Positions 1-62,465 are shown, counted from the stretch's first letter. The stretch: 64,000 nt of DNA from an uncultured Akkermansia sp. (GCA_947629715.1 CANRET010000004.1:1-64000); one strand, 5' to 3'. The notes: generated by a model not told the origin, from the sequence alone. Made by a program: numbers and translations.

Positions 1-3000
1 TCTGTGAGTCCGTGAGCGTCACACCCGACAGCGTCCAGTTCGCAGATTCCGCCAGGGAAACCGTCCCACTTGTCGCTCCTTCGCCCAAGCTCACGTTCTT
101 CAACGACGCCGATGCTTCCGTGGCGCTCAGATTGACAGATCTCCCCTCTTTCAGTTCCACGCTCACGGTCGAAGCATCCGCGCTCAACGTCAGCTCGCCG
201 CTGTCCTGAACTGTGATCGTGCCCGAGTACCCGCTCATGTCGGCGCCCACTTGCAGAGCGCCGTCACTCACCACGATGTTCCCCGAGCCGACCAGCGTGC
301 CGCTCGCATCCAGCTTCAAGGTCCCCGCCCCCTTCTTCGTGAGGGTATATGTTCCCACGTCCAGCTCCTTCATCAACGTCCATTCGGCGCAGTTTTCATT
401 TGTTGACGCCACCCACACGTCGATGCTTGTGTTCGTCTCAGCCTTAATATTCCAGTAAATCTTACTCCTCTCAGTCTCCGTCGCGTCTTGAGCCCCATTC
501 GTCCCCAACACCAATGCGGCATCGGCACTCACTCCTCGATCCGAAGCGTTGGAGCCGTCCCCTTTCAAGTGCAAGGTATTGCTGTGGTTGCCGGTGGTTT
601 TGCCAAGCACCCGACACTGTATCACCAACGAGCTGCCGTCCTCTACCCAAAAGTCCTCGACAACACCGATAGCATGGTCAGTCTCAATCCCCATCTCGCC
701 ATCGATAAACAATGTCGTTCCGGTCCCTTCATACGAGCGAAGTATCAGGTTTCCGATGGTCTGCCCCGGATGTGTGCCCTCACGGTTCCAGAAGAACGCC
801 CACAGGATGCCCGCTTGTGACATGCCATTCCGTAAAATTCCCGTACCCTCCAACACGATGGAGCCGGCCCCACTCGCGTAGTTATTGTTGCCCGAATTGG
901 TCAAATCCCAGTGGTTGTAATTCGCCGCATCTGATCCTCGCAGCACCAGTTCAGTTCCCGCCCCAAGCTCCATGTGCTTGAAGATGTATTTCTCACCACC
1001 ACTCGGCGCAGAGGTAATGACGAGCTTCGTCCCCTCACCCACCAGCGACAGGTTCTCAGAGTGTACGTACCCCGTGCCGGAAAGCGTGAGTTCAGCCGAG
1101 CCTCCTTCGCCGCCCACGGTCATTCTGCCCGTGGCAGCCAAGTTGCCGGATCCGGAGAAAACCCAACCGGTTCCCTGGCCCACTGTCACATTTTCCGGCG
1201 CCAGTTCTCCAACGAGTTCCACTTCTGTACTCACACCATCTCCGGGCATGAAGATCACATCACCCGTCCCGGTGAAAGCGGCTTCTTGTTGCGCGTCGTC
1301 TTTCCAATCCTTGTTCCCGCTCTCTGTATTCCATACATGACTCTCCGCCGTACCTGCCCAGTGCAAGCCCTTCAAATCCTCAAGAATGATGCTTCTGCCG
1401 TCTTCCGAGGGTTTCAGACGGGAACCGTAGGCCTCATTGACAAATTCCACGTGATCGGTCCAATGAGTACCATCCTCAAACAGTTGATACCCCTCCGCCT
1501 TTCCGCGCACGTGGTTCATAATAAACTCGTCCGTCAGCTCGATAAGCAACTTATTCTCAAAAGCTCCTCCGACTTTCAGCTTCAGGCCAGTGAGATCGCC
1601 TTTGAGACTCAACACGGAATCATTCCCCGACGACACTTCGAGATTTCCAAGCTCGAGCGTGCCGGTGGTCGCATACGTCTCCAGTCTGGCTCCGGCTCCC
1701 AAAGTAAGAGCGCTTAAAGAGACTTCGGGTTGAGTCTTACTCAATATCACGGTTCCTCCCGCTTCCACCTCCAGCGAACTTGCTGAAGTGGTAAGCTGTT
1801 CAATAGTGCATACGCCGGTTCCACCGACCGTCAAGGATTTTCCACTTATGTCCACCGATTGCAGCGTCCACGATGCATTCTCCCCCATTTGCAGCTTGGC
1901 GCTTTCTGGAGTCCCTCCCAGGGTCACGCTCTTCAAGGCGCCCGTACCGTTCAGGGTCAGCACGTTCGCATCCTCTGTTGCATTCTCCAGACTCACGCTC
2001 ACGTTCTCGGCATTCGCGCTCAGGGTCAGCCCGCTGCCGCCCTGAACTTTGATCGTGCCCGAGTACGCGCTCATGTCGGCGCCCACTTCCAAGGCGCCGG
2101 CGCTCACCGCGATGGCCCCCGATCCGGCAAGTGCGCCGCCCTCACCCAGCTTCAAGGTTCCATCCCCCGCCTTCGTGAGTTCATGTGTTCCCACGTCCAA
2201 CTTCTTCGTCAGCGTCCAGCTCCCCTCTGCCTCCACGGTAACCGTCCTGCTCGTGTCGCCTTCGCCGTCCAGACTCAAATTCTCCAACGAACCCGTACCG
2301 CCCAGGGTCAGCCCGCTGTTGTCCCAGACCTTGATCGTGCCCGAGTAACCGCTTATGTCTGCCCCCCCATCCACTTGCAAGGCGCCGGCGCTCACCACAA
2401 TATCTCCCGAGCCGACCAGCGAGCCGCCCTCACCCAGCTTCAACGTCCCCGTCCCCTTCTTCGTGAGAGTATATGTTCCCACGTTCAACTCCTTCATCAA
2501 TGTCCATTCGGCGCAGTTTTCATTTGTTGACGCCACCCACACGTCGATGCTTGTGTCCGACTCAGCCTTAATATTCCAGTAAATCTTACTCCTCTCAGTC
2601 TCCGTCGCGTCTTGAGCCCCATTCGTCCCCAACACCAATGCGGCATCGGCACTCACTCCTCGATCCGAAGCGTTGGAGCCGTCCCCTTTCAAGTGCAAGG
2701 TATTGCTGTGGTTGCCGGTGGTTTTGCCAAGCACCCGACACTGTATCACCAACGAGCTGCCGTCCTCTACCCAAAAGTCCTCGACAACACCGATAGCATG
2801 GTCAGTCTCAATCCCCATCTCGCCATCGATAAACAATGTCGTTCCGGTCCCTTCATACGAGCGAAGTATCAGGTTTCCGATGGTCTGCCCCGGATGTGTG
2901 CCCTCACGGTTCCAGAAGAACGCCCACAGGATGCCCGCTTGTGACATGCCATTCCGTAAAATTCCCGTACCCTCCAACACGATGGAGCCGGCCCCACTCG

Positions 3001-10824: not shown

Positions 10825-12141
10825 CTAATTGACGAGAGATGCGATCCATTTAATCCACGCCATTACCGTGCTTGCTCGGCGTTTTATCGTTTCCTCACCG
10901 AGATTGGGAGTATGTTGAGCCATCACAGGAATAACGTCCTTACGCGAAATGTGACACCCATTATCTATGTACTTCTTGAACACATGAAAGAAAACGGGAT
11001 CTTGGAGAATACTTCTCGCAAGTTCTAATTTATTTTCTCTGAACGATAATGAGGCGATCCGCCTCCCTTTTTTTGTTAATTCAACGCACTTGCTTCCATT
11101 CTCTTTCTTGATATTAACTAATCCAAGATAGGCAGCAGCGTTTGCGTAATAATCGGCTTGCCTCATTGTAAAATCATAATTTTTTGCTATGATTTCATCC
11201 ATGGTGAGCTCTTCTCCTTTCTCGTATAAGGCTTGAAGCATATCCTCAATACGAACAAATGAATCTGCTTGCGGAAATGTTATTTTTGAACAATTTGTCT
11301 GTGGCTGAATGCTTAACAGTGAATCTATATCCGAAGTTGTTACGTCTAAAGGATATATCGTGTACGCTGTCGACTTTTCGCAATATACTGAATTGAGGTT
11401 GTCTTGTTCGGGAAAGTTAAAACGATATAGAAAGAAGTTTCCGTTTATATATTTGAGAAATATGGGTATAATGGCTTTCTTAACACTGTTCTTTTGAGAT
11501 ATATAGCGGTAGGGAAAATACAATTGCCTGGTGTTAAAATCCCGGCACTCATGATTTTTAGCCTCAATAATATAAATTGCACTCGGAGATTCATAAACAG
11601 CATCAATTTCTATTTGTGCTTTGTTAATACGAAGAGCGTATGATCTCTGCTGTCCGAGACCTCTTATATTGAAATCGAAGACACCGGTACCAAATCGGCC
11701 TGATATTGTAGGCAAGAACAGATCAGAAGGTTCTTCTTCGACGAAATCATGAATGATACCAGAAGCGAAAGCACAGGCGATGGCCGTTTGTTCGGACGTT
11801 ATTTCGGCGGGCGATGACGGCAACGTAACGTAATTGTTCGGTATTTCATGATAATTAGGTTTTTCTGTACAATCAGGCAACTTCGTGTACAGATCAAACT
11901 TGCCGAGCAAAAATGAATGTCGAGAAACAGGTAAAACACTTAATTTGTTTTCACAAAAAATTGCGGGAAGATTAGAAGAATGATCAAATTTGGTCATTAA
12001 GCGACATTCTTTATACTCATTAATTTTTGATGAAGAAAGAGGAATTGGTTCATCTTCAGATAATCTACTCTGGAGGCTTTCGTGCTCGATAAGTTCGCTC
12101 CACTTCCTTTCGATGAGAGACTGGTGATATCGGTTACCCAT
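10825..12141 (-). CDS. Putative type II restriction endonuclease (PD-(D/E)XK type)
   Basis: Adjacent to a D12-class methyltransferase; candidate nuclease motif IEIDAVYESPSAIYIIEAKN; AT-rich relative to flanks. Confidence 0.75.
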   Translation of the reverse strand: MGNRYHQSLIERKWSELIEHESLQSRLSEDEPIPLSSSKINEYKECRLMTKFDHSSNLPAIFCENKLSVLPVSRHSFLLGKFDLYTKLPDCTEKPNYHEIPNNYVTLPSSPAEITSEQTAIACAFASGIIHDFVEEEPSDLFLPTISGRFGTGVFDFNIRGLGQQRSYALRINKAQIEIDAVYESPSAIYIIEAKNHECRDFNTRQLYFPYRYISQKNSVKKAIIPIFLKYINGNFFLYRFNFPEQDNLNSVYCEKSTAYTIYPLDVTTSDIDSLLSIQPQTNCSKITFPQADSFVRIEDMLQALYEKGEELTMDEIIAKNYDFTMRQADYYANAAAYLGLVNIKKENGSKCVELTKKGRRIASLSFRENKLELARSILQDPVFFHVFKKYIDNGCHISRKDVIPVMAQHTPNLGEETIKRRASTVMAWIKWIASLVN

Positions 12142-12146
12142 GATAA

Positions 12147-13004
12147 TTAAAAATTGGTTACAACAAGCTCCGTCATGGTACCGCGCGAATTGGGGGAAGC
12201 CGCAATTGCTCGGGGGGCGCGAACTTTGTGAATTTTATACTCGTGATAAAGTTCACGAATTAACGAGCAATCGGAGTTTGAGAGCATAAAAAACGCTTCT
12301 TGTTCCGCAATTGTGTCACAAAATTTCTTCAGTTTGGTTTGCTCCTCATACGAAAAGCCTCCAGGATTATAACCTGTAAAGTTTGATGTTTGAGATACTG
12401 GAGCATAGGGTGGATCCAAGTAGACCAGAGTTCCTTTTCTAATATACGGAAGTGTATCACAATAATTTCCGTTTAGAATCGTAACGTCGCTTTGATTCAA
12501 ATACTCTGATATAGCACAAACCTTTGAGTACTCGCGGTAATTGGGACTCTTGTAATAACCGTATGGCACATTAAAAAAACCTTGAGAATTAACACGATAC
12601 AAGCCGTTAAAACACGTTTTATTCAAATAAATGATACGAGCAGCTCTTTCTATGACTGAAAGCTTCGCAAATGACGGAGACCGATCAATATCACGAATCT
12701 TGTAGAAATGTTCGACTGAGTTGATATGTTTATCCAATTCCAAGAGTAGCTCCTTTGGGTTGTTGCGTACCACCTTATACACATTGATAAGCTCCGCATT
12801 CAAATCATTAATAACAGCTTTTTTTGGTTGGATCGAGAGCAACATGCCACCCGCTCCAACAAATGGTTCAACATAATTATTAATTTGATCGAGCGGGGGC
12901 ATTAAATTACATAAAATTGGGGCAAGAGCACGCTTCCCACCAACCCACTTGAGCAGGGGTGAAATGAACTTTTTCGGAGAGTTAGGGAAAATGGGTTGCA
13001 TCAT
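12147..13004 (-). CDS. D12-class N6-adenine DNA methyltransferase (Dam-like)
   Basis: LLKWVGGKRALAPIL, VEPFVGAGGMLLS, TLVYLDPPYAPVSQTSNFTGYNPGGFSYEEQ (DPPY motif). Confidence 0.94.
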   Translation of the reverse strand: MMQPIFPNSPKKFISPLLKWVGGKRALAPILCNLMPPLDQINNYVEPFVGAGGMLLSIQPKKAVINDLNAELINVYKVVRNNPKELLLELDKHINSVEHFYKIRDIDRSPSFAKLSVIERAARIIYLNKTCFNGLYRVNSQGFFNVPYGYYKSPNYREYSKVCAISEYLNQSDVTILNGNYCDTLPYIRKGTLVYLDPPYAPVSQTSNFTGYNPGGFSYEEQTKLKKFCDTIAEQEAFFMLSNSDCSLIRELYHEYKIHKVRAPRAIAASPNSRGTMTELVVTNF

Positions 13005-51419: not shown

Positions 51420-51674
51420 AGAAACGTCCGAAAAACTTCCTTACAGGAAACCCCATTCATCCTGACTCGTCAAGCTTCAAGTGTGGCATACGGAGTGGAC
51501 GCATTTTGGCGGGCAAAGCCGCATTGCCTCAAAAATAAAGTCACCGAAGGGACGCACCGAACGGAAAATGAGCAAGCACGCAAGAATAGAACCGCTTTCC
51601 GCGGATTGTCATTCGACTGTTGAGCAGCATGAAAACGCTGAGCAGCTACGTGGGAACGAAAGGCTGACTCCTCC

Positions 51675-53888
51675 TCACTCCTTCGCGCCGTGCTCCTTGA
51701 GGAGTTGGATGATGTCAGCCCTCAGCTTCTTTTCTTTTGCAAGCTGCAAGATGGATTTGCCGGTGTTGTTTTTGTGTGACACGTCCGCTCCGGCATCGAG
51801 GAAGGAGGCGACGTCCTCTGCAGTAGCAGTAGCTCCGCGATCGGCGATAAAGAGCATGAGTGCGCTGTTGCCCTGTTCATCGGTTGCGTTGGGGTCTGCT
51901 CCACTCTCGAGAAGCACCTTGGGAGCGTAGCGCCCCTGATAGCTCATTTTTTCACATTTCTGGATTTGGATGAGGGCGTGTTGAAGGTCGGCGCCGGCAT
52001 CCGCAAAGACGCGAACGAGTTTTTTCAGTTCTTCCACGTCGGGGGCGTTGTGGCGGCCCGTCCCATCGGTCCACCCTACCATCTTGGTGAAAATATCCTT
52101 CGGTACACGGGCTCCGGCTTGAATGAATACCTCAGCTGCTTCAGCAGTCATGGGCAGTGAGTTGAGCGGGAAGTCTTTTCCTTCCACCTTGAGTCCTGCG
52201 TCCAGAAGGCGCCGGGCAATGCGTTTGCCCAGTCCTCCGCAGCGAACCAGCGTGCGCTCATCATTCGCGGTCGCACCGTGGTCGATCAGGAGGAGGGCCA
52301 ACTCTTCGGCGACGCCAACCGGGTAATGCACACAGTCAAGAGCCGTCAGAGCGTCTTCGCTCGCTTTTGCCCCTGCTTTCAAAAGCATCTGCACGACGGT
52401 GAGCGCCTCTTTGCCTGCTTCCGGGATGAGCTTGTCAGGGTCGGCCATTTGTACGTCTCTCAGCCCCAGGATGTAGTTCAGCGGTGGTTCGGGGTTCACT
52501 CGCTTGTCGTTTGTATAAGGCGCGTTCACGTCGATACCGGCGTCGATGCAGCGTTTCACGAGCTTCGCGTACAGCTCGATGTCTCTTTTGTCTTTCGCGC
52601 GAAATTGAGAGAGGGCTATGGCATGCAAGAGGCTGCGTCCTTTTTCGTCCGTCAACCGCGCCCCCTTATCGAGGAGTTGCTCACAGGCGACCATCAGATT
52701 CTCACGTGCAGCGAGGAAGAGGACGGGTTCGCCGTTGCTTGTCATGTTTGGGTCAGCCCCGGCATCCAGAAGAGCCGGAATGACTCCGGAGCAGTCACGA
52801 TCATCTATTGCCTCCTGGAGCATTTTGTTTTTGTCAATCTTCAGCCCTGCTTTGAGCAAAATGCGTAGTTTCTCCGCGTCCCCGGCATACAGGGTTTGAT
52901 GGGTCACTTTCTCCACAGTCGTTTGATTCGTGAGGTCGAGCTTGCCCATCTTGAGCAGCATGGATGCTGTCTTTGCCGAAAAGGGGAAGTCGAGCAATTG
53001 CTCATCATTTGCCAGCTCCGGATTCTTTTCGATGCACTGCTTGAGTAGTTCGTTATTATTCATCAGCAATGCGTAGCGCATGAGACTCTTCGGTTCCATT
53101 TTCTGCGGTTCGGGGTCGAGTCCTAGGCTGATGGCGAGCCGCAGCGTGTCTCTTCCATCGGCGTCGACTTTCCCATCCAAGAGAGGGCTGTTGGCTGCCA
53201 CGTCCGTTTTCAGGTTCACTCCTTTTCGCACCATCAACGCTATCATGCATGAAACCGCTCCTGTGTCCCCGGTGATGTTCAATGGCACATTCTTCAGTGA
53301 GTCGACGCTTTGCAGCATTTGAATCGCTTTGGGGAAGCTCTTGCCATCGGGGGAACCTGAGCCGTGGAATGCGGCGACAATAGCTGCCGCGTCCGGACTT
53401 CCGATTCGCTGCTTTTCCTCCGAGGTCAGCGGCTTCGCTTCACACGCGTGGAGCAGGGCGCCGCTCCAATTTGATTCGAATTCTTCTCCTTGCCTCTCGC
53501 GGTATTGGTTCAGCAAATCCCCCGCCACCTTTCCCTTCTTGCTCTTGATAGAGGCATCCGCGCCTTTTGCTACAAGCCAGCAGACGGCGAGACGGTTGTT
53601 TTGCGCCGCGGCGTGCATGAGGGCAGTCTGCCCGAGCTTGTCCACGGCATTCACGTCGCCGCCTTCTTCGATCGCCTTGAGCTTTTGGAGCAGGGAGGCG
53701 ACCTTCTTCTGCTCCTTGCTGAGCTTGGCGCCCTTTGCCTGCTTCCCCGTGCCTGCCGGGAAGAGGAGCTCCACTCCCTGCTGCGGAACAGCCGCCGGTT
53801 CCTTTTCCTGCCCGCTCGCCATGCCCAGACTCATCAGCACGCCGACGAGTAAGCATGTTGTAAACAGCTTACAATAAGATAATAACAA
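51675..53888 (-). CDS. Secreted ankyrin-repeat protein, paralog 1 (TTG start; start uncertain)
   Basis: Signal-like N-terminus; PQQGVELLFPAGTGKQAKGAKLSKEQKKVASLLQKLKAIEEGGDVNAVDKLGQTALMHAAAQ; many ankyrin motifs; ends LLKEHGAKE. Confidence 0.88.
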   Translation of the reverse strand: MLLSYCKLFTTCLLVGVLMSLGMASGQEKEPAAVPQQGVELLFPAGTGKQAKGAKLSKEQKKVASLLQKLKAIEEGGDVNAVDKLGQTALMHAAAQNNRLAVCWLVAKGADASIKSKKGKVAGDLLNQYRERQGEEFESNWSGALLHACEAKPLTSEEKQRIGSPDAAAIVAAFHGSGSPDGKSFPKAIQMLQSVDSLKNVPLNITGDTGAVSCMIALMVRKGVNLKTDVAANSPLLDGKVDADGRDTLRLAISLGLDPEPQKMEPKSLMRYALLMNNNELLKQCIEKNPELANDEQLLDFPFSAKTASMLLKMGKLDLTNQTTVEKVTHQTLYAGDAEKLRILLKAGLKIDKNKMLQEAIDDRDCSGVIPALLDAGADPNMTSNGEPVLFLAARENLMVACEQLLDKGARLTDEKGRSLLHAIALSQFRAKDKRDIELYAKLVKRCIDAGIDVNAPYTNDKRVNPEPPLNYILGLRDVQMADPDKLIPEAGKEALTVVQMLLKAGAKASEDALTALDCVHYPVGVAEELALLLIDHGATANDERTLVRCGGLGKRIARRLLDAGLKVEGKDFPLNSLPMTAEAAEVFIQAGARVPKDIFTKMVGWTDGTGRHNAPDVEELKKLVRVFADAGADLQHALIQIQKCEKMSYQGRYAPKVLLESGADPNATDEQGNSALMLFIADRGATATAEDVASFLDAGADVSHKNNTGKSILQLAKEKKLRADIIQLLKEHGAKE

Positions 53889-53936
53889 ATACGGGGGGGG
53901 TAACGACGGATTTCATAGGGATGTGGACTACGGGAA

Positions 53937-54110
53937 GTAATGTTAATCTACCATACCACGCCAAGCGAGGCAAGAGAAATAACAGGTGAATAATAAAAAA
54001 TCGCCGGGAAGAGAACATAAAATGTCCAAAAACGACAATAAATCTTGTCCAAAATCAACAATAAATTTTATCGAAAACGCATAATAAAAATTGTCCAAAA
54101 TAGATAAAAA
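53937..54110. repeat. Intergenic region with about four ~23-bp TGTCCAAAA-type repeat units, related to 57949..58070
   Basis: ATAAAATGTCCAAAAACGACA / ATAAATCTTGTCCAAAATCAACA / ATAAATTTTATCGAAAACGCATA / ATAAAAATTGTCCAAAATAGATA. Confidence 0.75.
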
Positions 54111-54114
54111 TGGA

Positions 54115-54142
54115 TTGACATAGCAGGTAAGATTCGTAAAAT
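54115..54142 (+). promoter_or_regulatory. Predicted promoter of the AAA/DUF4143 gene
   Basis: TTGACA, 16-bp spacer, TAAAAT. Confidence 0.65.
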
Positions 54143-54161
54143 GAATGATAAAGGGAAGCAA

Positions 54162-55439
54162 ATGAGAAGAAGAGAATACAGAGCGAGAGTAGCGGATGAA
54201 ATGTTGAAGCGAAAGCTGGAGTCGAGTGGAGCGGTGTTGGTGGAGGGCGCAAAGTGGTGCGGGAAGACGACGACAGCGGCGCAAGTAGCGCGGAGCGAGC
54301 TGTACTTCAACAACCCGGACATGAGGGGGAATATCAGCGACCTGCTGCATACAGCGCCGCGCAGGCTACTGCGGGGGGAAGTCCCCATGTTGCTGGATGA
54401 ATGGCAGCAGGAGCCTAGCGTATGGGATGCGGTGAGGTTTGAGGTGGATCAACGGGGGGAGCCCGGTCAATTCATTCTCACGGGGTCTGCGGTGCCGGCG
54501 GATATGTCGCAGGTGCAGCATTCGGGAACGGGGCGCGTTGCGCGCGTGAAGATGCGTCCGATGTCGCTCTTTGAATCGGGTGAATCGTCGGGCGAGGTGT
54601 CGTTGACAGCACTGTTTGACGGGGCACGGGAAGTGGAGGGTAAGCGAGAGATGGGGCTGGAGGAACTGGCTTACCTGATATCGCGTGGCGGATGGCCGGG
54701 AGCTCTTGGCTTATCCTCCTCCGCTGCATTGGATACGGCCTTGAATTATTACGAGGGGGTGGTGAACACAGATATGTCGCGTGTGGATGGGGTGCGGCGT
54801 AGCCCGGATCGGGTGAGGGCTTTGCTGCGGGCGTACGCGCGATCGATAGGGACACAGACCGCTCTCGCCCGGATGGCGGCAACCCTCGGCGCGGGAGAGC
54901 CCCATCCACCGGCCGTGGCGACCGTGGCAGATTACGTGGAGGCTCTGCGGAAAATCTTTGTGATTGAAGAAGCGGAAAATTGGACGCCGCTGCTGAGGTC
55001 CCGCATCCCCATGCGGAAATCGCCCACGCGCTATTTTACGGACCCCTCTATCGCGCTGGCAGCCCTCGGTGCGGGGCCGGAGCAGTTGATGCAGGATCCG
55101 GCATCCATGGGACTCTTTTTCGAGAACATGGCGATACGCGATCTACGCGTGTATGCGGAGGCTCTCCGGGGCGAGGTGCATCATTTTCTGGACAAGAATG
55201 GTTTGGAGGTGGATGCCCTGATATGCTTGCGGAACGGTCAGTACGGACTCGTGGAGATTAAATTGGGCGGGTACAAGGCGGATGAAGGGGCCGCCACCCT
55301 CCTCAAGTTTGCCGGCAAGGTGGACACCCGGCACGCTCCCGCTCCCTCCTTCCTGATGGTCCTCATCGGTGTGGGAACTTACGCCTACCGCCGCGACGAT
55401 GGCGTGCTCGTTGTGCCGCTCAGCACGCTGCGTCCGTAA
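54162..55439 (+). CDS. AAA family ATPase with DUF4143 domain
   Basis: LESSGAVLVEGAKWCGKTTTAAQVARSELYFNNPD...MLLDEWQQEPSVWDAVRFEVD...QFILTGSAVPAD...FFENMAIRDLRVYAEALRGEVHHFLDKNGLEVDALI. Start at 54162 preferred over 54141. Confidence 0.9.
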   Translation: MRRREYRARVADEMLKRKLESSGAVLVEGAKWCGKTTTAAQVARSELYFNNPDMRGNISDLLHTAPRRLLRGEVPMLLDEWQQEPSVWDAVRFEVDQRGEPGQFILTGSAVPADMSQVQHSGTGRVARVKMRPMSLFESGESSGEVSLTALFDGAREVEGKREMGLEELAYLISRGGWPGALGLSSSAALDTALNYYEGVVNTDMSRVDGVRRSPDRVRALLRAYARSIGTQTALARMAATLGAGEPHPPAVATVADYVEALRKIFVIEEAENWTPLLRSRIPMRKSPTRYFTDPSIALAALGAGPEQLMQDPASMGLFFENMAIRDLRVYAEALRGEVHHFLDKNGLEVDALICLRNGQYGLVEIKLGGYKADEGAATLLKFAGKVDTRHAPAPSFLMVLIGVGTYAYRRDDGVLVVPLSTLRP

Positions 55440-55450
55440 CCCATACCTCC

Positions 55451-57928
55451 TCACTCCTTCGCACCGTGCTTCTTGAGGAGCTTCACAAATTCGTCGGAAT
55501 TCTTCTCCTGAGCGATTTGCAAGGCGGTCTTACCGTTCTTGTTTTTGATGTTTGGGTCAGCTCCCGCGTCCAGCAGGAGTGAGAGTACCTCTTGATGTCC
55601 GTCATACCCCTGTCCCTTTTGGCAAACGAGCATGAGGGCCGTGTTGCCTTCTTTATCCTGTAAATTGACATTGACGCCGGCCTTGATGAAGCTCTTGGTA
55701 ATTTTCGGGTCCGGAGGAGTCATAAGACTGAGAAAAATGTAATTATCATTGTGTTTGTTTTCATATTTCTCATTCGGATCCGCTCCGACAGCCAGGCATG
55801 CAGCTATTCCTGCGGCATCCCCAGCACCGCCCCAAATACAGTTCATGGTTGGCTTCGCACCCGCATCACGCATGATTTTTGCAGCTTCTGTAAGTTCTTC
55901 CTGGGTTAATTTCGGGGGCTGACCAGCTGTAGGTGAGGATGGTATGGTAGCAAATTTTAATTTTTTGAATAAGTCCTTGGGAACACTGGCGCCGGCCTCA
56001 AGCATTGCGCGCATATCCTTGGGCTTGGCGAGAAGGAGATCTCCGACCATTTTCGCCCCTCGCTGTTGCAGATACTTTGCAATATCGGAGCGACCGTGCT
56101 GCAGCGTGATACCCAGTGCACACAGTTTAACGCCATCTCCCAGGAGACCTTTATTCTCTACAAGAGCATTGGGGTCGGCGCCATTGTCGAGAAGCTGTTT
56201 GGCGATGTTTTTGCTCATCCATGCAAAGTGCATCAGGGGTGTGTAGCCGTTTTCAACGTTTGAAGATGGGAGTTTTGCTCCATGTTTAAGCAGGAAAAGA
56301 GTAAGTTTCTTGGTGGGAAGGCACTGCAGCACATCGTCCTCCATGGGGACTCCGTGTTTAAGAAGCATTTTGACTATATGGTAATTGCCTGAGCCTACGG
56401 CCAGCTTGAGAATACTTAACCCATTCTTGGGTGTTGCCTTGGTATCTGCTCCCTTTTGCAGAAGAAGACGTACTACTTTCAGATTTCCCTGAGCAACGGC
56501 GGAATACAGGGCGGTTTGACCATCATAGAGTGTTCCGGGAGCCACCCAACGTGTATTTACCTGAGCTCCCTTGCTCAGCAGGTGACTCACCGCTTGCTCA
56601 CCATATCTCGTGGCAGCAAGAACCAAGGGAGGGAGACCGGATTTCTCCCCGCTACCGACGGCGTTGACATCCGCCCCTGCTTCGATCAGCGCATCGATTA
56701 CTTCCGGATCATAGGCTTGATCCTCCATGTGTGAACAAGTATAGGAATGCTCCTCCATGTCAGCAGTCAGAAGATTCGGTTGTTCGTGGAGAACCGGGAG
56801 GGGAGCTCCTGCAGCCGCCAGCGCGCGGATTCCTGCTGCGCTCCGGCGTCCACTATTGAGGATATCCTGAATGAAGCACTCTTTCGAATCTTTATACAAT
56901 CCGTCCCATGTGAGTTTTGGGTCAAGTCCAGCATCAATGAGAACTTGCAGTGTTTCCGACGTGCCGAGACCGGCAATGATTTGACTTGCTTGCAAGCGAT
57001 TTCGGACTAGGTCCGGGTGTTCCGTCACGACCTTGCGCAAGGCGTCAGCATCATCCAACAGCATGGCAATCCCCGCTTGCGAGAGTGCATCGTCATTGCC
57101 GAGCTTGATGTTCAAAGCCATCAGAAGGAGAGCTAGTTCAGGCCTCAAATTAGACTCAGTCCATGTAACACCTTTGTTTACGTTGGTAACGACTTCATGT
57201 CCGCCGCTACTGCCGACAGTGACGCATCCATGCCCCCATGCACGTTGCCCTTCGGTGACGAGACTGTACCCGTGTCTCGAAAGCAAGGTCGCGAGGAGAG
57301 GATCGAGGGCAGGGCGTTGGATTCCCTCCATGAGAGAGAGGGAAGACCCCGATCTCAACAGTTGCGTCAACAATTTCAGACTTTTTGGTGAATCTTTTCC
57401 TCCACATTGACGAATCAATTCGAGAAATGCGCCACGGTCTGTCGAGCGATCCTCTTGCAATTGTTTTTCCTCCTCAGCTGAAAGCGGTTGCTTATCCACG
57501 CAGCAGGCTTTTAGAAAAGCCTGCAAGCTCTTGTCTTTTGCTAACTCTGCCGCTGTTTTTCCTTGCTGACTCTTCATTGTGGCGTCCGCGCCTTTCACCA
57601 CGAGCCAGCAGACGGCAAGTTTGTTACCCTGCTCGGCGGCGTGCATCAGCGCCGTCTGCCCATGCTCGTCCACGGCATTCACCTCGTCGCCCTTCTCGAT
57701 GTCCTTGAGTTTTTGGAGCAGGGAAGACTCTTCCATGCTGAGATTGGCATCCCCTGCCTGCTTTCCCGTGCCCGCCGGGAAGAGGAACTCTACCCCCTGC
57801 TGCGGAGCCTTTTCCTCCGCTCCCATTGTCCCGGCGAGCATCAGAACGCCCATCAGGATAAAAACAACAAAACGCTTGTAATGAGTTAATGACAGAAAAT
57901 CAAAAGGGAGAATAGAAGAAGAGTTCAT
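55451..57928 (-). CDS. Secreted ankyrin-repeat protein, paralog 2
   Basis: APQQGVEFLFPAGTGKQAGDANLSMEESSLLQKLKDIEKGDEVNAVDEHGQTALMHAAEQGNKLAVCWLVVKGADATMKSQQGKTA; ends LLKKHGAKE. Confidence 0.9.
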   Translation of the reverse strand: MNSSSILPFDFLSLTHYKRFVVFILMGVLMLAGTMGAEEKAPQQGVEFLFPAGTGKQAGDANLSMEESSLLQKLKDIEKGDEVNAVDEHGQTALMHAAEQGNKLAVCWLVVKGADATMKSQQGKTAAELAKDKSLQAFLKACCVDKQPLSAEEEKQLQEDRSTDRGAFLELIRQCGGKDSPKSLKLLTQLLRSGSSLSLMEGIQRPALDPLLATLLSRHGYSLVTEGQRAWGHGCVTVGSSGGHEVVTNVNKGVTWTESNLRPELALLLMALNIKLGNDDALSQAGIAMLLDDADALRKVVTEHPDLVRNRLQASQIIAGLGTSETLQVLIDAGLDPKLTWDGLYKDSKECFIQDILNSGRRSAAGIRALAAAGAPLPVLHEQPNLLTADMEEHSYTCSHMEDQAYDPEVIDALIEAGADVNAVGSGEKSGLPPLVLAATRYGEQAVSHLLSKGAQVNTRWVAPGTLYDGQTALYSAVAQGNLKVVRLLLQKGADTKATPKNGLSILKLAVGSGNYHIVKMLLKHGVPMEDDVLQCLPTKKLTLFLLKHGAKLPSSNVENGYTPLMHFAWMSKNIAKQLLDNGADPNALVENKGLLGDGVKLCALGITLQHGRSDIAKYLQQRGAKMVGDLLLAKPKDMRAMLEAGASVPKDLFKKLKFATIPSSPTAGQPPKLTQEELTEAAKIMRDAGAKPTMNCIWGGAGDAAGIAACLAVGADPNEKYENKHNDNYIFLSLMTPPDPKITKSFIKAGVNVNLQDKEGNTALMLVCQKGQGYDGHQEVLSLLLDAGADPNIKNKNGKTALQIAQEKNSDEFVKLLKKHGAKE

Positions 57929-57948
57929 TGTGACGTTTGGGTGGAGAG

Positions 57949-58070
57949 TAATGTCAATTTATCATGACTCGTCGAGCGAAGCAAGGAAAATAGCAGATGG
58001 ACGATAAAAATCGTCAGGAATGGGAGATAAAATATCCAAAAAGGATAACAAAACTTGTCCAAAATTGTGG
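57949..58070. repeat. Intergenic region related to 53937..54056
   Basis: GTCAATTTATCATGACTCGTCGAGCGAAGCAAGGAAAATAGCAG...GATAAAATATCCAAAAAGGATAACAAAACTTGTCCAAAATTG aligns with 53937..54056 by eye. Confidence 0.7.
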
Positions 58071-58399
58071 AGAGCAAAGATTGGGAGTGTCTGTGTCCCT
58101 GAGGAAAGGAGGAAGTTTTTCAGGACGGAGCCATCCTGATGCGATGAGGAGCATGAGGCGAGTGAGCCTGTGTCGGCGAGACCTACCTGCCGGGGAGCTG
58201 GAGAAGGAAATGAGATTCTTAAGAAAAATTAAATTTTTTTGACCCCCAGCGGGTAGTGGTTGGGGCAGGGGAGAAGGAGGGGAGGAAAAGTTGGAATGAA
58301 GGGGGAAGAGGGGAGAAGAAGCGAGCAAACCACCGACAGGTGAGTCGGAATGCGGTCGGAAGCCGAGAGGGACAAGAGGCAGGTAAACATGGGACTCAG

Positions 58400-58750
58400 G
58401 TGATTGAATTGATAACGAATAATATGGAATGGAGTGCGGGGGAAGTAGCCGAGCTGTATCGCAGGCGTTGGGATATCGAAAGTTTTTTCAAAATACTCAA
58501 GCAACACCTCAATATTAAGAGCTTCGTAGGGACATGCGAGCAGGCTGTGAGATCACAGATATGGGTAGCCATGATTGCCTATTTACTCGTGAAAGTGCTC
58601 AAGCGACGCGCTTCGCATCGGTGGTCGCTGGGAGGATTGGTTCACTACCTACGAATATCACTACTGAGCACGCAGAACCTATTTTCGTGGCTAAACCAAC
58701 CGTATGACATGGCTGGGACGGAAGAGGTTTTAGTGCTCAATAGCACGTAA
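58400..58750 (+). pseudogene. C-terminal remnant of an IS4-type (DDE) transposase
   Basis: VIELITNNMEWSAGEVAELYRRRWDIESFFKILKQHLNIKSFVGTCEQAVRSQIWVAMIAYLLVKVLKRR; N-terminal catalytic part missing. Confidence 0.85.
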
Positions 58751-58792
58751 AGTTTTATGGATTTGCCCAAAAATCGCCAACTCCTACTATCA

Positions 58793-60911
58793 TCATGCTT
58801 CCCTCCCATGAATTACATTTTCTTGGGACGGATGTGGATTCGACCCCGTTTTGAAAAATGCACGAAAAAACGCGTCTTCTTTCACGATTCCCCACTCGTC
58901 ACTGTGGTCTTTTTTTGTCCATGCCATGAGCTCCGGTTTGAAACCGTGCTGTTTGAGGATTTGGATGATGTCAACGTAGTCCTCGCAGAGTTTGGCAGGA
59001 AACTGGCTATGACTTGCCTGGCTAAGGTCGGACAGGATACGATCTGTCATGTCCTTGGGGATGCGGGCGCCGAGCTTCAGCAGCGGCTCGATTTTCTCCG
59101 GATCCACGACCCGGAGTTCTCCGGGGTCGATTCCCTTTTCCTTGAGCAACTTCACGACCTCCACCGCACCTTCCTTCATCGCGAGGCTCATGGCGGAGTC
59201 CTTGGAGTCCTCTTCCTCTACGCACACGGTCGGATCCACTCCGGCGTCCAGCAGACGCTTGGCAATCTTGCCGCCCCAAATACCGTTGATCATGAGGGTG
59301 GTCCATCCGGTGGGCGGCCAGTTCTGTTTACTTTTCGCTAGCGGGTCGGCGCCGGCGTCGAGCAGCATGAGGGCTAACTTTTCCCGTCTGGCGGGGGATA
59401 TCTCCGGTCTTAGTTCCTCAGCGAGGATGTCCTTGGGTACGTCCGCTCCCGCCTTGATCAACTGCTCCACCATGTGCAGGATGTCCGCCTCGATTTTCCC
59501 ACTGACGCGGTGAATGTAATCTTCGTCAAAATCTGCTCTAAGTCCGCCGCAAGCGGCATAGTAAATTGACTCCATTCCCCGCAGAATCTTTGGCGTGCAC
59601 ATCGGCTCCGGCGTCCAGCAGACGTTTCACGATCTCGGTGCGATGTGTAGCATTTTCCTTCCCCCCTGCGGAATTAGCGGCTGCCATCAGCGGAGTCATG
59701 CCGTAGGGTTCTTTTTGATCGTCTTTCGCCTTTTTACCCGGTGTATTGGGGTTAGCTCCGTGGGCGAGGAGCAGTTTCACATCCGTAAGGTTAACCTCGT
59801 CTGCTGCTTGATGAAGAAGTGTTGCAGAGTTTTCGTACGATAGTTTTGAGTTGATGCCGGTGTTCAGTGTCACCGGCAATGTGTTCACATCAGTCTTGGC
59901 TCCGGCATCAATGAGAGCGAGGATAAAGCTTGCGCTTTTGTAGTCATCCTGCTTCGTTGCCTTTTCCAAAATTTTGTCCGGCTCCCGGAGCGTCGCGCCC
60001 GCCTTGAGAAGCGTTTCCAGCATGGCCCCGTCGCCCTTTTTGATGACCGCCTCCATGAGCTTTTCGTTCTTGGCGTCCAGTCCGGCGTCCAGCAGAGCTT
60101 GCAGCATTTTTGCATCGGAGATGGAAGAAAATAATTCCTGGTTTTGGAGCAGAGACGAATCTTGTTTCAGGAGCGCGAGTACGGTTTCTTTTTGCTTCAG
60201 TTGAAGCGCGATCCTCATCTGCAGCCCGGGATCAACAATGCCTGTCCTCACCCCGAGCGCGCGGAGGAGTTGCAGCGGTTCCGCTTTTGCGCTGGAGAGG
60301 TCCTCCGGGAGAACGAACTTTCGTGCGCCGATGCGGTAAAGCAAGGCAAGTTTGATGGGACCTCCCTGAAAATACTCCATCTTCCATTCCGCTTTTTTAA
60401 GACTACTGAAATCTTTTGCCGCACGCAGTTGGGAAACCACACTTGCTTCCTTTTCGTATTCTGAAGAGAAGGAGTTTTTCTCAATTTTCCCCGGAATATT
60501 CAGTTGATAGGCGTACATGTCACGCGCTTCCTGGCGGCTCAGCGGCTGTTTTTCCTTCTCGAGCGCTGTCAGGAATTCGCGCATGTCTCCGTGAGCCACG
60601 TTGCCCGCCGTCTTGCCTTTCTCGCTTTTGAGTGAAGCATCCGCGCCCTTCGCTACGAGCCAGCAGACGGCAAGACGATTGCCCTGCGCGGCGGCGTGCA
60701 TGAGGGCGGTCTGTCCGTGTTTGTTCACGGCATTCACGTTGCCGCCCCTTTCAATCGCCTTGAGCTTTTGGAGCAGGGAAGCCGCCTTCTTCTGTTCCTT
60801 GTTGAGCTTGGCGTCCTTCGCCTGCTTCCCCGTACCTGCCGGGAAGAGTGTGGATTGCAAAATTAAATGCAACAGGTTCTTGGCACCAAAAAGGGGCGCC
60901 ATGAAGTTCAA
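58793..60911 (-). pseudogene. Degraded ankyrin-repeat paralog 3 (frameshift, signal peptide lost)
   Basis: ORFs 59538..60911 and 58793..59602 are consecutive parts of one ankyrin protein in different frames; LFPAGTGKQAKDAKLNKEQKKAASLLQKLKAIERGG matches paralogs but the sequence upstream differs. Confidence 0.8.
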
Positions 60912-61079
60912 AGCATGCTGGAGTCATTCCGTTCAAAACAACCAAGCGAAATTCGCAAAATACGATGCTGTGGCGCTGTGGAGGGAAAGTTTCACGGCGC
61001 GTCAGCTTGAAGGGCCACAAATGATGCTGGGACGGGCCACACCTCAGAGGGATCGTAAATGGGCAATCGCCTCGAGAGG

Positions 61080-62465
61080 TCAGGGCTGCGTAGCGCCGAT
61101 ATGATCTGTCCCTACCTCGCCATACAGGGTGAAGCCGGTGCATTCACGGATGGTAACGGGCACTATTTCGCCCACTTTGACCGTTCCCTGTTCAATAATC
61201 ACAGGCTTGTTCTGGGATGTGCGTCCCTGCAAGCGGTTGGCGTTGGTCTTGCTGGGACCGTCCACGAGGATGATCTGCCGGGAACCTACGAGAGCCATAT
61301 TGCGCGCGATGGCAATACGGTTAACGGTGTCAAGCAGGTCGTGATTGCGAGCTTCTTTCTCGCGCAGGCATACTTGGTCCGGCATATCAGCCGCCGGTGT
61401 GCCGCGTCTCGGAGAATACTGGAAGATAAAGGCATTGTCGAACTTGATTTGCTCCACTGCGGATTTGGTGAGCAGGTAATCTTCCTGAGTTTCTCCGGGA
61501 AAGCCTACGATGACATCCGTGGTGATGGCCAAATCCGGTCGGGCAGTCCGCATGGCTTCGCAGAGGGCCATGTACTTCTCCTGGCGGTAGGGACGTTTCA
61601 TCAGCCGCAAGATACGGTCGCTTCCGCTCTGCATGGGGAAGTGGATATGGCTGCAGAGCTTCGGCAGATAGGAGAAAGCCTGCACCAGATCTTCGCGGAA
61701 ACCGATGGGGTGCGGAGACGTGAAGCGGATGCGCTCCAGGCCCTCCACCTCGTGCACGGCTTCCAGCAGTCGCACAAAAGCGCCCCGACCTTCCGCCACC
61801 GGTTCATGGCGACCGTAGCGGTTTACAATCTGCCCGAGCAGTGTCACTTCCTTCACGCCGTTATCCACCAGACGGCGCACTTCGTCAAGGATATCTGCTG
61901 CCGGTCTGCTTCGTTCTTCCCCGCGTGTGAAAGGTACGATGCAGTAGGAGCAGCGCATTTCGCACCCCTGCATGATGGAGACAAAAGCCGAACATGAGGA
62001 GCGCACCGGCAGGTGATCGCGAATGCGGTTATGGGCATCCTGCAGGTCATCCGCCTCGCATATCTGCGCCCCCTTGAGACGCACGCCATGTTGCGGATTC
62101 GCCATGCGTTCCTTCAGCAGGGCGTCGCACAATGGGAAGACGCGGTGATAGCAGCGTGTGCCAGTCACGACGTCCAACCGAGGCACGGCGTCGAAAAGTT
62201 CGCGCGTTTTGCTCTGCACCATGCAGCCCATAAAACCGAACACTATCCACGGGCGTTCGGATGCCTTCGAGCAGAGCAAGCCCATTTTCCCGAGAGCCTT
62301 CAGCTCTGCCTTCTCGCGTACGGAGCAGGTGTTGATAAGCACCACATCCGCGTCCTGTTCGGATTCCGCCAGCTTGTATCCTCCCGCCAGGAACATGGCG
62401 GCTACCTGCTCGGAGTCACGCTCGTTCATCTGGCAGCCGTAAGTTTTAATATAGACGGAAGGCAT
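61080..62465 (-). CDS. miaB: tRNA-2-methylthio-N6-dimethylallyladenosine synthase
   Basis: MPSVYIKTYGCQMNERDSEQVAAMFLAGGYKL, QGCEMRCSYCIVPFTRGEERSRP (radical SAM CxxxCxxC), C-terminal TRAM-like region. Confidence 0.96.
   Translation of the reverse strand: MPSVYIKTYGCQMNERDSEQVAAMFLAGGYKLAESEQDADVVLINTCSVREKAELKALGKMGLLCSKASERPWIVFGFMGCMVQSKTRELFDAVPRLDVVTGTRCYHRVFPLCDALLKERMANPQHGVRLKGAQICEADDLQDAHNRIRDHLPVRSSCSAFVSIMQGCEMRCSYCIVPFTRGEERSRPAADILDEVRRLVDNGVKEVTLLGQIVNRYGRHEPVAEGRGAFVRLLEAVHEVEGLERIRFTSPHPIGFREDLVQAFSYLPKLCSHIHFPMQSGSDRILRLMKRPYRQEKYMALCEAMRTARPDLAITTDVIVGFPGETQEDYLLTKSAVEQIKFDNAFIFQYSPRRGTPAADMPDQVCLREKEARNHDLLDTVNRIAIARNMALVGSRQIILVDGPSKTNANRLQGRTSQNKPVIIEQGTVKVGEIVPVTIRECTGFTLYGEVGTDHIGATQP

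What the first reader, a model, noticed from the sequence alone, without database searches (positions are those of the whole stretch)
51675..60911. Locus of three paralogous secreted ankyrin proteins interleaved with an AAA/DUF4143 ATPase
All three share a distinctive N-terminal block (LFPAGTGKQAxxAxLxxEQKKxASLLQKLKxIExGxxVNAVxxxGQTALMHAAxQxNxLAVCWLVxKGADA). They appear to have arisen by tandem duplication that also copied upstream DNA. Exported ankyrin proteins next to a DUF4143 ATPase of unknown function are candidates for an uncharacterised host-interaction, inter-bacterial or defence-related module.
Basis: partly seen in the sequence, partly recalled or inferred. Interest (0 to 1): 0.66.

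Follow-up and report, generated by a model that had tools for sequence, protein, structure and literature searches.

The report
Poly-C switched secreted ankyrin gene family
In a group of gut Akkermansia (sampled, by their names, from rabbits), dozens of genes for exported ankyrin, Sel1 and outer-membrane proteins start with the same run of 8-11 cytosines inside the export signal, so gaining or losing one cytosine should switch each protein on or off; this is a family-wide version of the phase switching known from Neisseria.

Summary
Gene A (51675-53888, -) and gene B (55451-57928, -) are intact exported ankyrin proteins. Copy C is a wreck: it has no promoter or signal peptide and is frameshifted. 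Gene A's probable start (ATG at 53916) is followed 16 nt later by C8, which throws the signal peptide out of frame; B has lost the tract and reads through. The same leader (ATG, 5-6 codons, TA, C7-C11, spacer, TTGTTATTA) heads 82 genes in 12 of 76 Akkermansia genomes. It sits in front of unrelated exported bodies: two ankyrin types, two Sel1 types and an outer-membrane beta-barrel. In the deposited consensus 12 of 82 are in frame, yet bodies out of frame in both genomes compared evolve under purifying selection (omega mostly 0.2-0.4). Near-identical genes differ in tract length, and one locus carries C9 and C11 in the same assembly. Promoter modules and bodies are reshuffled at the tract. Best reading: a multi-locus contingency family switched by slipped-strand mispairing. 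The DUF4143 link recurs in three more genomes but is absent from most family loci, so it is probably a passenger. The window block is a 9.6-kb insertion between topoisomerase III and MiaB.

The parts
53945..53973 (-). Promoter-like site of gene A: TTGCCT, 17 nt, TAGATT, about 30 nt upstream of the ATG
   Evidence: Read; the same kind of -10 box lies 33-41 nt before the ATG in most leaders.
53914..53916 (-). Probable true start codon (ATG) of gene A; the frame stops after 15 codons with C8
   Evidence: an ATG lies 16 or 19 nt before the tract in 77 of 82 leaders.
53893..53900 (-). Poly-C tract (C8) of gene A; C7 or C10 would join ATG and body
51675..53888 (-). Gene A body: rest of signal peptide, FPAGTGK block, ankyrin repeats; out of frame with the ATG as deposited
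   Evidence: 86% aa identity with a G008 gene under a different promoter class.
54023..54100 (.). 23-nt tandem repeat (3.4 copies) between gene A and DUF4143; a related copy lies upstream of gene B
   Evidence: role unknown.
54141..55439 (+). AAA_14/DUF4143 ATPase (432 aa) with ExD..ExK nuclease-like motif; matches PADLOC PDC-S01
   Evidence: 94-95% identical copies beside ankyrins in G078, G081, G084.
55451..57928 (-). Gene B: ankyrin paralogue without tract, ATG in frame ('locked on')
57956..57984 (-). Promoter-like site of gene B: TTGCTT, 17 nt, TAAATT
   Evidence: Read.
58256..58750 (+). Remnant of a DDE transposase (PF01609)
58793..60850 (-). Copy C: ankyrin pseudogene, leader lost, frame broken near 59540-59600
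51491..61115 (.). 9.6-kb insertion between topoisomerase III and MiaB; 115-540 nt in relatives

Best explanation
Gene A belongs to a family of phase-variable (contingency) genes. Each gene starts at an ATG followed 5-6 codons later by a poly-C tract inside the region encoding the signal peptide. Slipped-strand mispairing changes the tract by one C. One length in three joins the ATG to signal peptide and body, so the protein is made and exported; the other two end in stops after 10-20 codons. With about 8-11 such genes per well-sampled genome, each cell shows its own subset of exported ankyrin, Sel1 or outer-membrane proteins. The shared leader is also where homologous recombination swaps promoters and bodies or deletes whole genes. 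Shown: the leader, its distribution, frame states, differing tract lengths including two lengths at one locus in one assembly, purifying selection on out-of-frame bodies, and promoter/body shuffling. Inferred: reversible switching in the living cell, export by Sec, and a role at the cell envelope in contact with host, mucus, phage or competitors. DUF4143 is probably a passenger.
For: The leader pattern occurs in 12 of 76 genus genomes; the reversed-pattern control gave one hit in all. Of 82 leaders, 73 have C>=8, against 31 other C/G runs >=8 in 1.23 Mb of fetched loci. The ATG-to-tract distance is 1 mod 3 in 77 of 82 and in 17 of 20 upstream classes, so ATG to tract is read as codons. Both wrong frames stop after 10-20 codons. 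Bodies stay open to over 1200 aa, and cross-genome pairs have omega 0.15-0.50 even when out of frame on both sides. Near-identical genes differ in tract length: C11/C8 (99% aa), C10 on/C9 off (98%), C7/C8 (97%); C10 on/C9 off with an otherwise identical leader. One locus carries C9 on contig C58 and C11 on contig C37 of the same genome, aligned by a contiguous C8 locus in G085. In 28 of 39 pairs with >=85% identical bodies the upstream classes differ; two 2.6-kb gains or losses end at leaders. Precedent: a G9 tract in A. muciniphila Amuc_1413 slipped to G10 in culture and abolished mucus binding (PMC13055324).
Against: No reads, expression or protein data: all states are assembly consensus. 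Only 12 of 82 are in frame, fewer than one third (p=2e-4; copies are related, so p is optimistic); this needs mostly-off populations, or another route to expression. TTG follows the tract in 75 of 82 copies, so an internal start cannot be excluded. SPAdes contigs from repeat families can be chimeric, which could mimic some promoter swaps. The signal peptide was judged by eye.
Confidence: 0.83

Rival explanations
1. The tract is a fixed RNA-level device: RNA polymerase or the ribosome slips on it, so a fraction of product is always made whatever the DNA length, without heritable switching.
For: Explains intact bodies under purifying selection behind out-of-frame leaders, and the shortage of in-frame alleles.
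Against: Near-identical genes differ in tract length and one locus shows two lengths in one assembly; in A. muciniphila a G9 tract changed length in the DNA and the phenotype followed (PMC13055324).
Confidence: 0.12
2. Translation starts at the TTG just after the tract; the tract and the upstream ATG are untranslated and only affect expression level.
For: TTG is present in 75 of 82 and would give a short classical signal peptide.
Against: Seven family members lack any in-frame start within 8 codons after the tract; no ribosome-binding-like sequence precedes the TTG in any copy (but only 1 of 81 ATGs has one either); the ATG-to-tract spacing keeps to 1 mod 3, which an untranslated segment would not need.
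Confidence: 0.08
3. The poly-C leader is mainly a recombination joint that shuffles promoters and bodies; frame changes are a by-product.
For: 28 of 39 near-identical body pairs sit under different upstream classes and two gene gains or losses end at leaders.
Against: Does not explain why ATG-to-tract spacing is frame-conserved or why the run itself stays pure (C>=7 in 79 of 82) while neighbouring bases change. Compatible with the main explanation as a second function.
Confidence: 0.1
4. Ankyrins and DUF4143 form one functional module (host interaction or defence).
For: Divergent ankyrin/DUF4143 pair in four genomes, a second DUF4143 subtype beside the outer-membrane protein in four, DUF4143 3' remnants beside ankyrins elsewhere; PDC-S01 matches.
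Against: Almost all family ankyrins have no intact DUF4143 neighbour; 8 of 8 diverged members of the same subfamily are elsewhere; DUF4143 is frequent in the genus without the family.
Confidence: 0.1

Closest known systems
Neisseria opa genes (opacity outer-membrane proteins)
   Same: Multigene family; repeat in the leader-peptide coding region; on/off by frame through slipped-strand mispairing; much diversity from recombination between loci (PMC3960869).
   Different: Repeat is CTCTT, not poly-C; the proteins are one beta-barrel family. Here one leader serves unrelated ankyrin, Sel1 and barrel proteins; no sequence relation.
Neisseria pilC1 poly-G tract
   Same: Single-nucleotide tract; G10 to G9 truncates the protein, on to off (PMC5231331).
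   Different: One or two genes, unrelated protein.
Amuc_1413 G9 tract of Akkermansia muciniphila
   Same: Same genus; homopolymer of similar length; length change seen in culture with loss of mucus binding; G8/G9/G10 among genomes (PMC13055324).
   Different: A single exopolysaccharide gene with the tract tens of codons into the reading frame; no family, no shared leader.
Akkermansia cps1 capsule inverton
   Same: Phase-variable surface trait in the same genus (PMC13343947).
   Different: Switches by inversion of a DNA element next to the locus, not by tract length.
PADLOC PDC-S01 (AAA_14/DUF4143 candidate defence protein)
   Same: The neighbouring ATPase matches it at 2e-61.
   Different: Candidate family only; its link to the ankyrin genes is not general.

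Membership tests
Simple-sequence contingency locus | Pure simple-sequence repeat in the 5' coding region, long enough to slip | tested here: met
   C>=8 in 73 of 82, C>=7 in 79 of 82.
Simple-sequence contingency locus | Other lengths put the gene out of frame with an early stop | tested here: met
   Off peptides 10-20 aa.
Simple-sequence contingency locus | Tract length differs between alleles or within a population | tested here: met
   Near-identical gene pairs and C9/C11 at one locus in one assembly; within-population evidence is a single locus.
Simple-sequence contingency locus | Out-of-frame gene remains functional (selection on the body) | tested here: met
   omega 0.15-0.50 over 55 pairs.
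Simple-sequence contingency locus | Reversible on/off of expression observed | not testable with these tools
   Needs culture, reads or proteomics.
Opa family | CTCTT repeat and Opa-type barrel | tested here: not met
   Repeat is poly-C; A and B are ankyrin proteins; only body type 3 is a barrel (PF13505).
Type IV-secreted ankyrin effectors (Legionella Ank) | Match to the effector family above its cut-off | tested here: not met
   AnkH, AnkY, AnkG and AnkX models score 22-33 bits against cut-offs of 500-1400; the N-terminus looks like a Sec signal.
AAA_14/DUF4143 ATPases, PADLOC PDC-S01 | Profile match of the neighbouring ATPase | tested here: met
   PF13635 95 bits, PF13173 58 bits; PDC-S01 206 bits.
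Ankyrin-DUF4143 module | Synteny conserved across the family | tested here: not met
   Adjacent in four genomes for one subtype; 0 of 8 for diverged members; absent at most family loci.

The most novel reading that the evidence does not exclude
A portable phase-switch: one short leader (ATG, poly-C, first half of the signal peptide) has been placed in front of structurally unrelated exported proteins and behind some twenty upstream sequence classes, and recombination at this joint keeps re-pairing promoters with bodies. The lineage would then vary which proteins are on, how strongly each is transcribed, and which genes it holds.
Probability: 0.5. Interest if true: 0.75.

Novelty: new variant of a known kind. 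Interest (0 to 1): 0.62.

Why it matters
Akkermansia is a central gut symbiont. Its phase variation described so far is by an invertible element (capsule) and one poly-G gene. A whole repertoire of switchable exported repeat proteins in one clade would mean that each cell presents a different combination of envelope or secreted ankyrins, as Neisseria does with Opa. It also makes annotation misleading: most of these genes would be called with a wrong start or as non-exported. The claim is cheap to test, because tract-length counts in existing reads would confirm or refute it.

Tried and rejected
(1) 'DUF4143 association is unique to this genome': first inferred on three sister genomes, then withdrawn when searches found 94-95% identical copies beside ankyrins in G078, G081 and G084. 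(2) Phage or mobile-virus origin: no relative of the N-terminal block in viral contigs. (3) RNA element: only two tRNAs in the window. (4) Contig breaks as proof of tract polymorphism: 4 of 81 tracts lie within 100 nt of a contig end against 1.25 expected, too weak. The L127/L047 break starts exactly after the tract, which simple length polymorphism would not give; not used. (5) Solved-structure match for DUF4143: none. (7) Structure prediction was not run, because ankyrin, Sel1 and barrel assignments were clear from Pfam.

Full report
WHAT IS IN THE WINDOW. Two intact ankyrin genes (A 51675-53888 -, B 55451-57928 -) flank an AAA_14/DUF4143 gene (54141-55439 +). A third copy (58793-60850 -) starts abruptly inside the conserved block, without promoter, start or signal peptide, and its body is split over two frames. 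A transposase remnant lies at 58256-58750. The three copies share a 245-nt block; A and B also share upstream DNA.

THE LEADER. Reading upstream of the listed TTG start of A gives ATG AAA TCC GTC GTT A, then C8, then GTAT TTG TTA TTA TCT TAT TGT AAG. The same arrangement was found upstream of nearly every family copy in four genomes. A search for ACCCCCCC-N(1-9)-TNNTTATTR over 76 genomes of the genus hit 12 genomes and none of the other 64; the reversed-pattern control gave one hit in total. After fetching these loci, 82 leaders were parsed. Tracts are C7-C11 in 79; 73 have C>=8, against 31 other C/G runs of that length in 1.23 Mb of fetched loci. Close relatives in a named collection all come from MAGs titled 'uncultured Akkermansia sp. 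isolate Lapin-...'; 'lapin' is French for rabbit, so the host is inferred from the name. The contigs are SPAdes NODE contigs, which suggests short-read data.

WHAT THE LEADER HEADS. Five body types: FPAGTGK ankyrins; a second ankyrin type (LFHGK); two Sel1-repeat types; and an outer-membrane beta-barrel (PF13505, E 4e-8 in L086; a second member scores just below the cut-off). Nearly all begin with LLLxxxK/R followed by a hydrophobic core, judged by eye to be a Sec signal peptide.

FRAME. The distance from ATG to tract is 16 or 19 nt in 77 of 82 (1 mod 3), and 1 mod 3 in 17 of 20 upstream sequence classes. Tract and spacer after it vary without regard to frame. In the deposited sequences 12 are in frame (for example L025, L028_9317, L107_8537, L116, L120) and 70 are not; off frames stop after 10-20 codons. 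Gene A is off (C8; on at C7 or C10). Gene B has lost the tract and is in frame.

OFF GENES ARE NOT DEAD. For 55 reciprocal-best cross-genome pairs, omega (Nei-Gojobori, own script) is 0.15-0.50, including pairs out of frame on both sides. Bodies stay open to over 1200 aa. So they must be expressed some of the time.

TRACT LENGTHS MOVE. Genes 97-99% identical in protein have different tracts: L026 C11 / L133 C8; L107_8537 C10 on / L123 C9 off; L091 C7 / L109 C8. L051 C10 on and L053 C9 off have otherwise identical leaders. In genome G016 the two sides of one locus were assembled as contigs C58 and C37, which overlap across the tract with C9 and C11; their order is given by a contiguous locus in G085 with C8. 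This is the nearest thing here to within-population variation, and it rests on one locus.

SHUFFLING. Upstream regions fall into about 20 classes by identity, though most share a TTGCNT / TRRTARANT promoter-like pair at a fixed distance from the ATG. In 28 of 39 pairs with >=85% identical bodies the upstream classes differ. L107 holds [promoter 2][type-2 body][promoter 3][type-1 body], where L123 holds [promoter 2][type-1 body]; L106 against L132 is a second case; both differences of about 2.6 kb end at leaders. Gene A itself is a mosaic: its body is closest to a G008 gene (89% DNA identity), while its 5' block, upstream DNA and DUF4143 are closest to G081/G078 (88-89%). Chimeric assembly may explain some cases, but hardly a majority of pairs across many contigs.

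THE LOCUS IS AN INSERTION. Topoisomerase III and MiaB are 115-540 nt apart in G078, G079, G080, G081 and G084; in the window they are separated by the whole block.

DUF4143. The window's protein has copies at 94-95% identity beside leader-ankyrins in G078, G081 and G084. A second subtype lies next to the leader-headed barrel gene in four genomes. Remnants of the DUF4143 3' end sit beside further ankyrins. Diverged members of the same subfamily are elsewhere (0 of 8 adjacent), and most family genes have no such neighbour. The protein carries an ExD..ExK nuclease-like motif and matches PADLOC's candidate PDC-S01. I read it as a passenger, or at most an occasional partner.

MECHANISM AND STATUS. 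Shown: leader, distribution, frames, selection, length differences, shuffling. From the literature: homopolymer slippage acts in this genus (Amuc_1413, G9 to G10 in culture, with loss of mucus binding; PMC13055324); Opa uses a repeat in the leader peptide plus recombination between loci (PMC3960869); pilC1 uses poly-G (PMC5231331). Inferred: in vivo switching, export, and an envelope or host-facing role. The low share of in-frame alleles (12 of 82) is the main unexplained point: it may reflect mostly-off populations, or some leak by slippage or internal starts.

NOVELTY. Contingency loci by homopolymers are known, and one is known in Akkermansia. New here are the family scale, the exported ankyrin/Sel1/barrel bodies under one leader, and the leader as the joint where promoters and bodies are re-paired. 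I found no paper describing it, within a library of open-access papers only.

Noticed in passing
window 158-2670: Direct repeats of 225 nt (3 copies) and 300 nt (2 copies, 93%) at the start of the window, in a stretch of strongly negative GC skew; three ORFs tested there have no Pfam match.
   Followed up: partly
window 10825-13004: Low-GC stretch (48-51%) with a DUF6996/DUF6997/DUF7226 protein and a second ORF behind it; looks like an acquired two-gene system, not identified.
   Followed up: partly
window 54023-54100: 23-nt tandem repeat (3.4 copies, TGTCCAAAAACGACAATAAA) between gene A and DUF4143, with a related copy upstream of gene B; a possible regulatory site.
   Followed up: no
L044 5449: C11 tract outside the leader family; may mark another switchable gene.
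   Followed up: no
G080:C12:37738-39093 and G082:C16:15170-16537: MiaB matches with one in-frame TGA each; pseudogenes or assembly errors.
   Followed up: no
L086 4436-5689 and L091 2103-3356: A conserved porin-like gene stands divergent from the leader-headed beta-barrel gene in both genomes.
   Followed up: no
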